DNA of 37,744 bases from Corallococcus praedator. GTDB lineage: Bacteria > Myxococcota > Myxococcia > Myxococcales > Myxococcaceae. Location of the stretch: positions 1-37,744 of the forward strand of contig NZ_RAWI01000043.1 in the NCBI RefSeq assembly GCF_003612125.1. Direction: 5' to 3'. Made by a program: the position numbers and the translations under genes. Below the pieces are notes generated by a model. That model was not told the DNA's origin. It saw only the letters and a list, made by a program, of their open reading frames with translations, and ran no database searches. Shown piece by piece: positions 21,970 through 28,371 of the stretch (position 1 is its first letter; each line of letters opens with the position of its first letter).

Positions 21970-21984
21970 AGGCCCTGTCGCATG

Positions 21985-22000
21985 AGCAATGCCTGTTCCA
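21985..22000 (-). promoter_or_regulatory. Sigma-54-type promoter of the porin-acs-actP operon
   Basis: On the minus strand TGGAACAGGCATTGCT matches the -24/-12 consensus TGGCAC-N5-TTGCW with one mismatch. The invariant GG and GC are exactly 10 bases apart. The predicted start is about 21974, only 5 bases before the annotated ATG, which is the main argument against it. Confidence 0.45.
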
Positions 22001-22073
22001 CGCCCGCGTCCGTTGCGTTTCAGGACCTTGGGGGTTGGCTCGGCGCGTCAGGATGTGGCGGAAGGTGACAGGG

Positions 22074-22122
22074 CGTTACCCCCCGTAACGATTCTCGCAC
22101 TGCGTCGTAACGCCGGGGTAAC
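22074..22122. promoter_or_regulatory. Helically phased GTTAC/GTAAC half-sites (candidate activator array)
   Basis: CGTTAC-N5-GTAACG (22074-22090) is a perfect dyad. Two more GTAAC copies start at 22107 and 22118. Centres are 10, 22 and 11 bases apart, near whole turns of the helix. The array lies about 100-150 bases upstream of the predicted sigma-54 start site. Confidence 0.5.
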
Positions 22123-22129
22123 ACCGGGT

Positions 22130-22164
22130 GACACGGCCACGCGATGCGTCAGCGTGGCCGTGTC
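22130..22164. terminator. 13-bp perfect hairpin after the serine hydrolase gene
   Basis: GACACGGCCACGC (22130-22142) pairs perfectly with GCGTGGCCGTGTC (22152-22164) across a 9-base loop. It lies 97 bases past the hydrolase stop and just upstream of the GTAAC array. It may insulate the two minus-strand operons or serve as a regulator site. No T-run follows. Confidence 0.5.
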
Positions 22165-22260: not shown

Positions 22261-23361
22261 TCAGGCCGCCGCGTCCTCCTCGGGTTGGATGCCCGCGTCC
22301 GCGTCAGTGTCCGGCAGCACCTCCGAGGTGTCGAGGCCCGCGGCTTCCAGGAGGATCTTCCGGCCCGTGGCGGGCAGGCTGAGGCCCGTCGTGGGGTGCC
22401 CGTTGGTGAGGAGCACCACCGCTGCGGCGTGTCCGGGCAGGAAGCCCACCCACGCCACGAAGCCGCCGTTGCCGCCGGCCTTGCTCACCACCTTCGCGCC
22501 GCCGGGCGCGTCGGTGATGTACCAGCCCAGGCCAATGGACTGACGGGCGGAGATCTCGAAGTGGGGCGTGTGCGCGAGCTTCATCGCGCGGTAGGTGAGC
22601 AGCGGCATGGAGGGGACGCGGAAGAGGTTGCCCTCCAGGAAGCGCAGCATGTCCGACGCGGTGGAGTTGAAGCCCACGCCCCGGTAGCCGAGGCGCTTGC
22701 CCTGGGTCGTGTAGCCCTGCGCGATGCGTTCGGGCCGGATGCCGGTGAGGTCCACGCGCGTGTCGCGCATCGCGAGCGGCTCCTGGATGTCCGTGGCGAA
22801 CAGCTCCGGGTAGCTGCGCCGCGCGGCGAAGGTGGTGGTGAAGCCCTGCGTCACCTCGCTCACGTTGGAGTAGCTGTAGTGCGCGCCCACGCGCGTCTCC
22901 GGGTTGAAGCGCGTCCAGAAGTCGAACATCGCTGGGGGCGGCACCTCCCCCCGGTACAGCGCGCCCGCGGGGTGGCCGGGCACGTTGGCGGACGGCATGC
23001 CCGCCGTCATGGTGCCCAGCGCCTGGGGCGTCACCTGCCGGATGACGGTGCCCTGCTGGCGGACCTCCCCCGGCAGGAAGCGGGTGATCTGATCCGTCAG
23101 CGCCAGCTTCCCCTCCACGATGCGCGCGGCGGCGAGCGTGTTGGTGAAGACCTTCTGCACGGAGCCGATGAGGAACAGCGTGTCCTCGGACACCGGTTGG
23201 TTGGCTTCACGGTCCGACAGGCCCGCGACGTAGTGGGCGCGCACGTCTCCGACGGCCACCGCCGCCGACACGCCAATCTCCGTCTGCGTGCCCAGGTAGT
23301 CCTTCATGGCCGCCGCGACGAGCTGCTTCAGCCGCGCGGGGTCCTGCGCTTCGGTCGGCAT
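22261..23361 (-). CDS. Serine hydrolase of the class C beta-lactamase / penicillin-binding family
   Basis: A 366-aa protein with the three family boxes: SVQK (Ser67, Lys70), YSN (164-166) and a KAG triplet in VVSKAGGNGGF. These place it with the serine beta-lactamase-like hydrolases (Pfam Beta-lactamase), which include esterases, D-aminopeptidases and AmpC. The substrate is not predictable. No signal peptide is present from ATG 23361, which has GGAG 8 bases upstream; an in-frame extension to 23409 adds only Arg/Ser-rich residues. The C-terminal 25 residues are acidic. It follows the 159-aa gene by 16 bases and so should be transcribed from the sigma-54-type promoter at 23917-23932. Confidence 0.85.
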   Translation of the reverse strand: MPTEAQDPARLKQLVAAAMKDYLGTQTEIGVSAAVAVGDVRAHYVAGLSDREANQPVSEDTLFLIGSVQKVFTNTLAAARIVEGKLALTDQITRFLPGEVRQQGTVIRQVTPQALGTMTAGMPSANVPGHPAGALYRGEVPPPAMFDFWTRFNPETRVGAHYSYSNVSEVTQGFTTTFAARRSYPELFATDIQEPLAMRDTRVDLTGIRPERIAQGYTTQGKRLGYRGVGFNSTASDMLRFLEGNLFRVPSMPLLTYRAMKLAHTPHFEISARQSIGLGWYITDAPGGAKVVSKAGGNGGFVAWVGFLPGHAAAVVLLTNGHPTTGLSLPATGRKILLEAAGLDTSEVLPDTDADAGIQPEEDAAA

Positions 23362-23377: not shown

Positions 23378-23857
23378 CTACGACTCGTAGAGGGAGACGT
23401 CGCAGCCATTGCTGGTCATCTGGATCTTCATGTCCTCGGAGGAGCCGTTGAGGAAGAAGTAGACGGTGGTGCCATCGTCGGAGGCATCCAGGGTGCAGTA
23501 GAAGTTCTGCTTGCACGTCCAGATCTTCCCGTTGTCATCCTGGAACTGGACCCACCAGTAGTCGTGACCGATGGCGCCGGTCCAGTAGGTGGCCGGGAAT
23601 GAAGAGCTGGTGGCGTTCTGCGCGAGCGAGGGCCAGTTCCCCTGCTGCTGATAGCTGGGGTCGTTGTTGTAGCGGTGGCGCAGCGTCACGCCGCTGATGG
23701 CCGAACCCCACTGGTTGACGACGACGCAGTTGGCGGTGCGCTCCGTGGACAGGGGGGCGCCACCCTTCGCGGCGGTGCGGGCCGTGTCGGGACGCAGGCG
23801 GGTGTCGAAGCCGGACCGGGGCTGACCATTCGAGTCGAGGCGGGCGGAATTGCACAT
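23378..23857 (-). CDS. Small Trp/Asn-rich probable beta-sandwich protein
   Basis: A 159-aa protein. The first 40 or so residues are polar and probably disordered. The rest (about 41-159) is strand-rich, with VVVNQWGSAISGVTLRHRY, ATYWTGAIGHDYWWVQFQD, a WTCKQNFYC pair of cysteines and a further Cys near the end. The pattern resembles small secreted fungal and bacterial proteins described as up-regulated in daf-2 or lectin-like; I offer this only as a resemblance. No signal peptide is visible. ATG 23857 is supported by AGGAG 9 bases upstream; an in-frame ATG at 23878 would place that site inside the gene. It is the first gene of a two-gene operon behind a near-consensus sigma-54 promoter. Confidence 0.72.
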   Translation of the reverse strand: MCNSARLDSNGQPRSGFDTRLRPDTARTAAKGGAPLSTERTANCVVVNQWGSAISGVTLRHRYNNDPSYQQQGNWPSLAQNATSSSFPATYWTGAIGHDYWWVQFQDDNGKIWTCKQNFYCTLDASDDGTTVYFFLNGSSEDMKIQMTSNGCDVSLYES

Positions 23858-23916: not shown

Positions 23917-23932
23917 AGCAAGCGATGTGCCG
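23917..23932 (-). promoter_or_regulatory. Near-consensus sigma-54 promoter for the 159-aa protein / serine hydrolase operon
   Basis: On the minus strand CGGCACATCGCTTGCT differs from TGGCAC-N5-TTGCW only at the first base. GG and GC are 10 bases apart as required. The predicted start at about 23906 gives a 49-base leader containing AGGAG before ATG 23857. Confidence 0.7.
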
Positions 23933-23973
23933 CGCGTCGCTTCCCTCTGGGAGCCCGTGAGGGGCGCCGCCGT

Positions 23974-24024
23974 CGACGCGGTTCGACGCGTTTCGACGCG
24001 TCGAAACATGTCGGCATCGACGCG
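23974..24024. promoter_or_regulatory. Palindrome and CGACGCG repeat array (candidate enhancer site)
   Basis: GTTTCGACGCGTCGAAAC (23990-24007) is a perfect 18-base palindrome. CGACGCG occurs at 23974, 23984, 23994 and 24018: three at exact 10-base steps and a fourth 24 further. The array spans about -68 to -118 from the predicted sigma-54 start, where an NtrC-family activator would bind. It also lies just past the activator gene's stop. Confidence 0.65.
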
Positions 24025-24031
24025 TCGGACG

Positions 24032-28367
<4,336 letters not shown>

Positions 28368-28371
<4 letters not shown>

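What the first reader, a model, noticed from the sequence alone, without database searches (positions are those of the whole stretch)
23917..24024. A complete sigma-54 promoter with a palindromic enhancer array, beside its candidate activator gene
The minus strand carries CGGCACATCGCTTGCT (one mismatch to consensus, exact GG-N10-GC spacing), a 49-base leader with AGGAG, and a 159-aa gene plus serine hydrolase. At about -68 to -118 sit four CGACGCG copies, three at 10-base steps, and the perfect 18-base palindrome GTTTCGACGCGTCGAAAC. The gene just upstream encodes an NtrC-family protein with GAFTGA. Core, enhancer site, targets and activator are all within about 3 kb. That this particular activator binds here is inference.
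Basis: partly seen in the sequence, partly recalled or inferred. Interest (0 to 1): 0.75.

Follow-up and report, generated by a model that had tools for sequence, protein, structure and literature searches.

The report
Sigma-54 promoter of a myxobacterial regulon
The switch found here is real and conserved, but it looks like one member of a set of similar switches scattered through soil-dwelling myxobacteria, probably run by a regulator encoded elsewhere in the genome rather than by the regulator gene next door.

Summary
The sequence claims hold. A GG-N10-GC core (23918-23931, minus strand), CGACGCG array and palindrome (23990-24007) lie in front of a 159-aa PUD1_2-family gene and a serine hydrolase. 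The palindrome alone is not improbable (139 of 300 simulated windows have an 18-bp one); the array is (0 of 300). Core and palindrome are kept in 7 of 7 Corallococcus genomes with this gene.
The proposed activator is probably wrong. Downstream of NtrC the site is absent in 8 of 14 readable genomes, and in one of these the promoter and operon lie apart from NtrC. A different site, GTTAC-N5-GTAAC, before the porin-acs operon fits this NtrC better.
The same module recurs before an aegerolysin-like gene, lipases, phosphoesterases, other small proteins and, in another genus, a serine-hydrolase orthologue with no NtrC nearby. Palindrome-to-core distances cluster near 46, 56, 67, 79 and 100 bp: whole helical turns. 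One orphan activator, 'EBP-B', has the site upstream in 26 of 33 orthologues examined (1 of 36 paralogues) and occurs in all 21 module-bearing genomes. I infer it is the activator. No binding was measured.

The parts
23917..23932 (-). Sigma-54 -24/-12 core, CGGCACATCGCTTGCT
   Evidence: Sequence; GGCAC-N2-CG-S-TTGCTC in 7 of 7 orthologous promoters
23940..23953 (-). Second shared element (CTCCCAGAGGGAAG on the gene strand); GAGGG about 15-16 bp upstream of the GG; function unknown
   Evidence: GAG[GT]GA at 15 or 16 bp upstream of GG in 12 of 12 locus A and B promoters; a similar GAGGG is seen in the locus C promoters
23973..24028 (-). CGACGCG half-site array, proposed activator-binding region
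   Evidence: Copies at 23974, 23984, 23994, 24018; 0 of 300 simulated windows hold so dense a cluster
23990..24007 (.). Main palindrome GTTTCGACGCGTCGAAAC, centre 67 bp upstream of the GG
24017..24028 (.). Second palindromic site TCGACGCGTCGG, centre 91 bp upstream of the GG
23378..23857 (-). 159-aa target gene, PUD1_2 family (PF18457)
   Evidence: Pfam E 3.7e-9, 37.2 bits against cut-off 28.8, for the ORF from its upstream GTG; matches in 6 other Corallococcus genomes
22261..23361 (-). Serine hydrolase of the class C beta-lactamase fold, second gene of the operon (start at MPTEAQ chosen by eye from relatives; the longest ORF starts at 23409)
   Evidence: PF00144 E 3.9e-43; relatives at 64-66% identity sit directly under the same promoter module in three genomes of genus g41
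24032..25417 (-).
   Evidence: against
25414..28371 (-). Histidine kinase paired with the NtrC (start chosen by eye)
   Evidence: HisKA, HATPase_c and PAS_4 in Pfam
22075..22089 (.). GTTACGGGGGGTAAC palindrome upstream of the porin-acs operon, proposed site of the neighbouring NtrC
   Evidence: A GTTAC-N5-GTAAC site with a GG-N10-GC core downstream in 12 of 13 sources searched
21986..21999 (-). Second sigma-54-type core GGAACAGGCATTGC, in front of the porin gene

Best explanation
The feature is one promoter of a small sigma-54 regulon of the Myxococcaceae. Shown by sequence: the promoter has a YCGAC-NN-GTCGR palindrome, often doubled, a whole number of helical turns upstream of a -24/-12 core, and lies in front of the 159-aa PUD-family gene and serine hydrolase. 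Inferred: the palindrome is bound not by the adjacent NtrC but in trans by an orphan enhancer-binding protein, EBP-B (in this genome at contig C1159, 6008-7612). EBP-B has no receiver domain in Pfam, an FHA-like but unproven N-terminus, a AAA+ domain, and two Fis-type helix-turn-helix stretches. EBP-B would bind as a dimer or higher oligomer, contact RNAP-sigma-54 from one face of the DNA, and switch on a set of small proteins and lipid- or ester-cleaving hydrolases. The neighbouring NtrC more likely controls the porin-acs operon through GTTAC-N5-GTAAC.
For: Site and core conserved. The module recurs at several unrelated loci: by my sorting 30 of 42 family-scan matches belong to such promoters; the other 12 are near the reversed-pattern control level (17), and the 9 of these with a held locus lie in long open frames. 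In the genus scan 14 of 14 matches lie at two loci. Spacing is by whole turns: 12 clusters defined without a period, R 0.985, reached in 0 of 20,000 random sets; chance matches show no such phasing. The site precedes EBP-B in 12 of 15 Corallococcus, 2 of 2 g18 and 12 of 16 g41 loci, against 1 of 36 paralogue loci. The palindrome often stays in front of EBP-B where the small gene is lost. EBP-B is found in 21 of 21 module-bearing genomes. NtrC without the site, the separated G005 locus, and the serine hydrolase under the module away from NtrC argue against the neighbour. A separate NtrC candidate site exists.
Against: No binding or expression data. In the window's own genome (G000), and in G002 and G005, no full site was found upstream of EBP-B although its frame is intact; 4 of 16 g41 loci also lack it. 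EBP-B has GAYSGA rather than GAFTGA in Corallococcus. EBP-B and its targets share a phylogeny and the promoter groups may share ancestry, so co-occurrence and the spacing statistic are not fully independent. Myxobacteria have many activators, and another co-distributed one is possible. Structure predictions of the target proteins were poor.
Confidence: 0.72

Rival explanations
1. The adjacent NtrC-type response regulator binds the palindrome and activates the operon.
For: Adjacent, same strand, GAFTGA present; 6 of 14 readable genomes have the site right after the gene.
Against: Site absent after NtrC in the 8 readable genomes where the 159-aa gene does not follow it; G005 keeps the promoter away from NtrC; the module occurs at other loci and before a serine-hydrolase relative with no NtrC match nearby; a different site in front of porin-acs resembles the published CbrB half-sites.
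Confidence: 0.08
2. Another activator, co-distributed with the regulon but not EBP-B, reads the palindrome; EBP-B is only one of its targets.
For: EBP-B often lies downstream of a module-driven small gene, so it could be a regulated passenger; in G000, G002 and G005 EBP-B lacks the site.
Against: The site stays in front of EBP-B in several genomes where no small gene remains; paralogue loci lack it (1 of 36); EBP-B is in every module-bearing genome found.
Confidence: 0.15
3. Both regulators act: NtrC from nearby and EBP-B at the palindrome, integrating carbon status with another signal.
For: NtrC and operon are adjacent in 6 of 14 readable Corallococcus genomes, and the porin-acs promoter with its own array lies just downstream.
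Against: By eye no GTTAC-type site lies between NtrC and the 159-aa gene; G005 tolerates separation.
Confidence: 0.04
4. Chance or a non-regulatory repeat, such as a terminator of NtrC.
For: An 18-bp palindrome alone is expected in about half of such windows.
Against: Array density, conservation, recurrence at several promoters and whole-turn spacing; absent after NtrC where the target gene is absent.
Confidence: 0.01

Closest known systems
Sigma-54 promoters activated by enhancer-binding proteins (NtrC/NifA class, recalled)
   Same: GG-N10-GC core, upstream palindromic sites, AAA+ activator with Fis-type helix-turn-helix
   Different: A specific Myxococcaceae regulon; sites about 45-100 bp upstream of the GG in whole-turn steps; activator apparently a receiver-less protein with two helix-turn-helix stretches
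FHA-domain enhancer-binding proteins of Myxococcus xanthus (Jelsbak 2005; only the citation seen)
   Same: Activators without a receiver domain in the same bacterial family; N-terminus FHA-like by a weak profile comparison
   Different: Pfam FHA is not matched; no EBP-B match at E 1e-224 in ten g41 genomes, such as the 9.0-Mb G062
CbrA-CbrB of Pseudomonas (passages of PMC6296734 read)
   Same: The neighbouring kinase and NtrC pair resembles it (by eye); the porin-acs promoter carries GTTAC/GTAAC half-sites like the TGTTAC and GTAACA subsites reported there
   Different: Concerns the neighbouring system, not the palindrome in the finding; abstracts listed call CbrAB exclusive or unique to pseudomonads
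PUD-1/PUD-2 (PF18457; passages of PMC3683130 read)
   Same: The 159-aa gene product matches the family profile; the paper reports a beta-sandwich fold and homologues in two bacteria
   Different: No function known; here in a sigma-54 operon with a serine hydrolase

Membership tests
Sigma-54-dependent promoter | GG-N10-GC core close to TGGCAC-N5-TTGC (consensus recalled) | tested here: met
Sigma-54-dependent promoter | RpoN encoded in the genome | tested here: met
   Sigma54_AID, E 2.1e-15
Sigma-54-dependent promoter | Core conserved in orthologous promoters | tested here: met
   7 of 7
Sigma-54-dependent promoter | Transcript starts there and needs rpoN | not testable with these tools
   No expression data
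Sigma-54 enhancer-binding proteins (EBP-B) | Sigma-54 interaction AAA+ domain | tested here: met
   PF00158 E 8e-59 in the G000 copy
Sigma-54 enhancer-binding proteins (EBP-B) | GAFTGA motif (recalled) | tested here: inconclusive
   GAYSGA in the 15 Corallococcus copies, GAYTGA in three g18/g41 copies
Sigma-54 enhancer-binding proteins (EBP-B) | Fis-type helix-turn-helix | tested here: met
   HTH_8 above cut-off, two stretches
FHA-type enhancer-binding proteins | N-terminal FHA domain | tested here: inconclusive
   No Pfam FHA match in two EBP-B proteins at E 1, in 13 N-termini, or at the EBP-B place among 47 FHA matches in G000; profile alignment P 0.0072, probability 5%
CbrAB | Kinase with sodium/solute symporter domain | tested here: inconclusive
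   No symporter family among the Pfam hits at E 0.01; resemblance is by eye
CbrAB | TGTTAC/GTAACA-type subsites at a target promoter | tested here: inconclusive
   GTTAC/GTAAC sites present and like the subsites in passages; binding by this NtrC untested
PUD1_2 | PF18457 above cut-off | tested here: met
   37.2 bits against 28.8
Aegerolysin (127-aa locus B protein) | PF06355 above cut-off | tested here: not met
   14.8 bits against 22; called aegerolysin-like only

The most novel reading that the evidence does not exclude
A previously undescribed Myxococcaceae regulon, perhaps for attacking or remodelling membranes: an orphan double-helix-turn-helix sigma-54 activator, possibly reading phosphoproteins through an FHA-like domain, co-induces small aegerolysin- or PUD-like proteins with lipases, a phosphoesterase (perhaps phospholipase C-like) and a serine hydrolase. 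Evolution has moved its binding site only by whole helical turns.
Probability: 0.35. Interest if true: 0.68.

Novelty: new member of a known kind. Interest (0 to 1): 0.52.

Why it matters
It replaces a one-locus guess with a testable regulon of seven target types sharing one DNA code and one candidate activator. Orthologous promoters whose sites differ by 11 or more bp in whole-turn steps are natural experiments on helical phasing of sigma-54 enhancers. It also gives PUD-family proteins in myxobacteria a regulatory context that I did not see in the listings, and suggests a separate target site for the neighbouring CbrB-like system.

Tried and rejected
Palindrome as NtrC terminator: rejected, because it is absent after NtrC where the target gene is absent. 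Genome-wide enrichment of the bare 14-mer: none. Structure prediction of the 159-aa protein (mean pLDDT 54.3) and the 127-aa protein (43.8): too poor, so no fold search was run. PDB sequence searches with the 159-aa protein and with the EBP-B N-terminus: nothing convincing. All-bacteria scan: 16 of 23 hits are taken as chance, since tblastn with the five query proteins matched none of them apart from one weak NtrC match in L076. Paper searches: helical phasing with sigma-54, 0 papers; Corallococcus with sigma-54 enhancer-binding proteins, 0 papers; aegerolysin/Myxococcus/sigma, no relevant title among the 20 listed of 1,917.

Full report
What is there. The window lies in a 10.5-Mb genome (G000). 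On the minus strand the order is histidine kinase, NtrC-type regulator, intergenic region, 159-aa gene, serine hydrolase, then a porin and acetyl-CoA synthetase (the synthetase name is by eye). RpoN is encoded.

Chance. An 18-bp perfect palindrome somewhere in a window of this composition turned up in 139 of 300 simulations, and this window has a second one at 27408. The dense CGACGCG array turned up in 0 of 300. The palindrome at up to 2 mismatches occurs at one place in G000; the shorter 14-mer at up to 1 mismatch is not enriched.

Conservation. Seven of 16 Corallococcus genomes, G000 included, carry the 159-aa gene. All seven keep CGACGCGTCG at the main site and the GGCAC..CG.TTGCTC core. 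The centre-to-GG distance is 67 bp in five and 56 bp in two. A GAGGG element 15-16 bp upstream of the GG is shared with other promoters of the set; its role is unexplained.

The neighbour is probably not the activator. NtrC is present in 15 of 16 Corallococcus genomes at the strict cut-off. For 14 of these the downstream DNA could be read (G003 is cut by the contig end). The site follows NtrC in six, exactly those where the 159-aa gene follows it, and is absent in eight. In G005 the operon, promoter and palindrome are intact on contig C790 while NtrC is on C176. A different array, with GTTAC-N5-GTAAC and its own GG-N10-GC core, precedes the porin gene; it was found in 12 of 13 sources searched, among them genomes without the 159-aa gene (the thirteenth, L092, ends before the porin). 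It resembles the TGTTAC and GTAACA subsites reported for CbrB in Pseudomonas putida (passages of PMC6296734). The kinase's CbrA likeness is by eye; Pfam listed no symporter domain.

A second locus. In G001, G004 and G011, which lack the 159-aa gene, the palindrome stands before a sigma-54 core and a 127-aa aegerolysin-like gene (Pfam 14.8 bits, below cut-off 22), followed by a receiver-less activator that I call EBP-B. G007 and G012 have the same arrangement. In several genomes that have lost the small gene the palindrome remains directly in front of EBP-B.

A regulon. A genus-wide scan for CGACNNGTCG plus spacer plus GGCAY-N5-TTGC gave 14 matches in 16 genomes, all at these two loci, with 1 match for the reversed control. 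A family-wide scan with YTGC gave 42 matches in 96 genomes against 17 for the control. By reading contexts I assign 30 of the 42 to promoters of the set. Of the other 12, nine have held loci and lie in long open frames; three (one each in G015, G097, G108) have no locus and were not examined. The promoters of the set stand before: the 159-aa gene; the 127-aa gene; a class 3 lipase in six Corallococcus including G000 (C1170); a phosphoesterase-family protein in three g41 genomes; a 136-137-aa protein in three g41 and two g18 genomes; a 131-aa protein with EBP-B behind it in G110; and, in three g41 genomes (G085, G109, G112), a serine hydrolase 64-66% identical to the one in this window, beside a divergent kinase-like gene and without an NtrC match in the flanks held (the Pfam names of lipase and phosphoesterase were tested on one member each). 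An all-bacteria scan of named genomes gave 23 hits: seven (six Corallococcus records, one Myxococcaceae MAG) lie before a PUD or aegerolysin-like gene, and 16 look like chance.

Spacing. Twelve clusters, defined without reference to a period, give R 0.985 for the best period between 10 and 12 bp; 0 of 20,000 random sets reach this (distances). Where two palindromes lie in front of one core I used the nearer one. As a control, the 16 chance hits of the all-bacteria scan (R 0.41 at best; 331 of 2,000 random sets reach it) and ten chance families of the family scan (550 of 2,000) show no phasing, though several of their distances happen to lie near 66. The clusters are not fully independent, since promoters may share ancestry. 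At EBP-B loci of g41 I examined 16 of 17 (no locus was returned for G108): 12 have a palindrome-core pair, four do not.

EBP-B. The protein has a sigma-54 AAA+ domain and two HTH_8 stretches; in Corallococcus its loop motif is GAYSGA. The site lies within 750 bp upstream in 12 of 15 Corallococcus, 2 of 2 g18 and 12 of 16 g41 orthologues, against 1 of 36 paralogue loci held; that one is G075, which may be an orthologue. The chance rate is about 0.1 per 750 bp. G000, G002 and G005 lack a full site there. EBP-B is present in all 21 genomes found to carry modules by searches that did not use EBP-B (12 Corallococcus, 7 g41, 2 g18; for the modules, 17 and 67 for EBP-B). Counting together with four Corallococcus known, 35 of 96 family genomes have EBP-B; in the other 61 I count no promoter of the set. 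The cut-off used (1e-224) missed those four copies (G001, G009, G010, G013), so absences elsewhere are provisional. The N-terminus is FHA-like at best.

Mechanism and limits. I infer that EBP-B binds the palindromes and contacts sigma-54 polymerase from one face of the helix. That the promoter and array are real is supported by sequence and conservation; who binds, when, and what the targets do is inference. By eye the target proteins lack signal peptides; no tool tested this. That genus g41 is Myxococcus is recall from genome size only.

Novelty. Paper searches showed no account of this regulon in their listings; subscription journals are mostly not held.

Noticed in passing
21970-22130: The porin-acs operon has its own sigma-54-type core and a conserved GTTAC-N5-GTAAC array, resembling CbrB subsites; likely target of the neighbouring NtrC.
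   Followed up: yes
23940-23953: A GAGGG element at fixed distance upstream of the -24 box, shared by three promoter groups; no known factor assigned.
   Followed up: partly
L145 (G005 contig C790): A 962-aa gene of unknown kind lies upstream of the promoter region, where NtrC stands in relatives.
   Followed up: partly
L144 / G000:C1159:6008: EBP-B of the window's own genome has an intact frame but the site upstream of it has decayed to GTCGACGGGTCG.
   Followed up: partly
L098 (G009:C1:2566962 and 2566995): Two exact TTCGACGCGTCGAA sites 33 bp apart at a locus not examined.
   Followed up: no
L179, L182, L184: In genus g41 the serine hydrolase is beside a divergent gene that reads like a Ser/Thr protein kinase with an anti-sigma-like N-terminus (by eye).
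   Followed up: no
27408-27425: A second 18-bp perfect palindrome, GCGCCACGGCCGTGGCGC, inside the kinase gene; probably chance.
   Followed up: no
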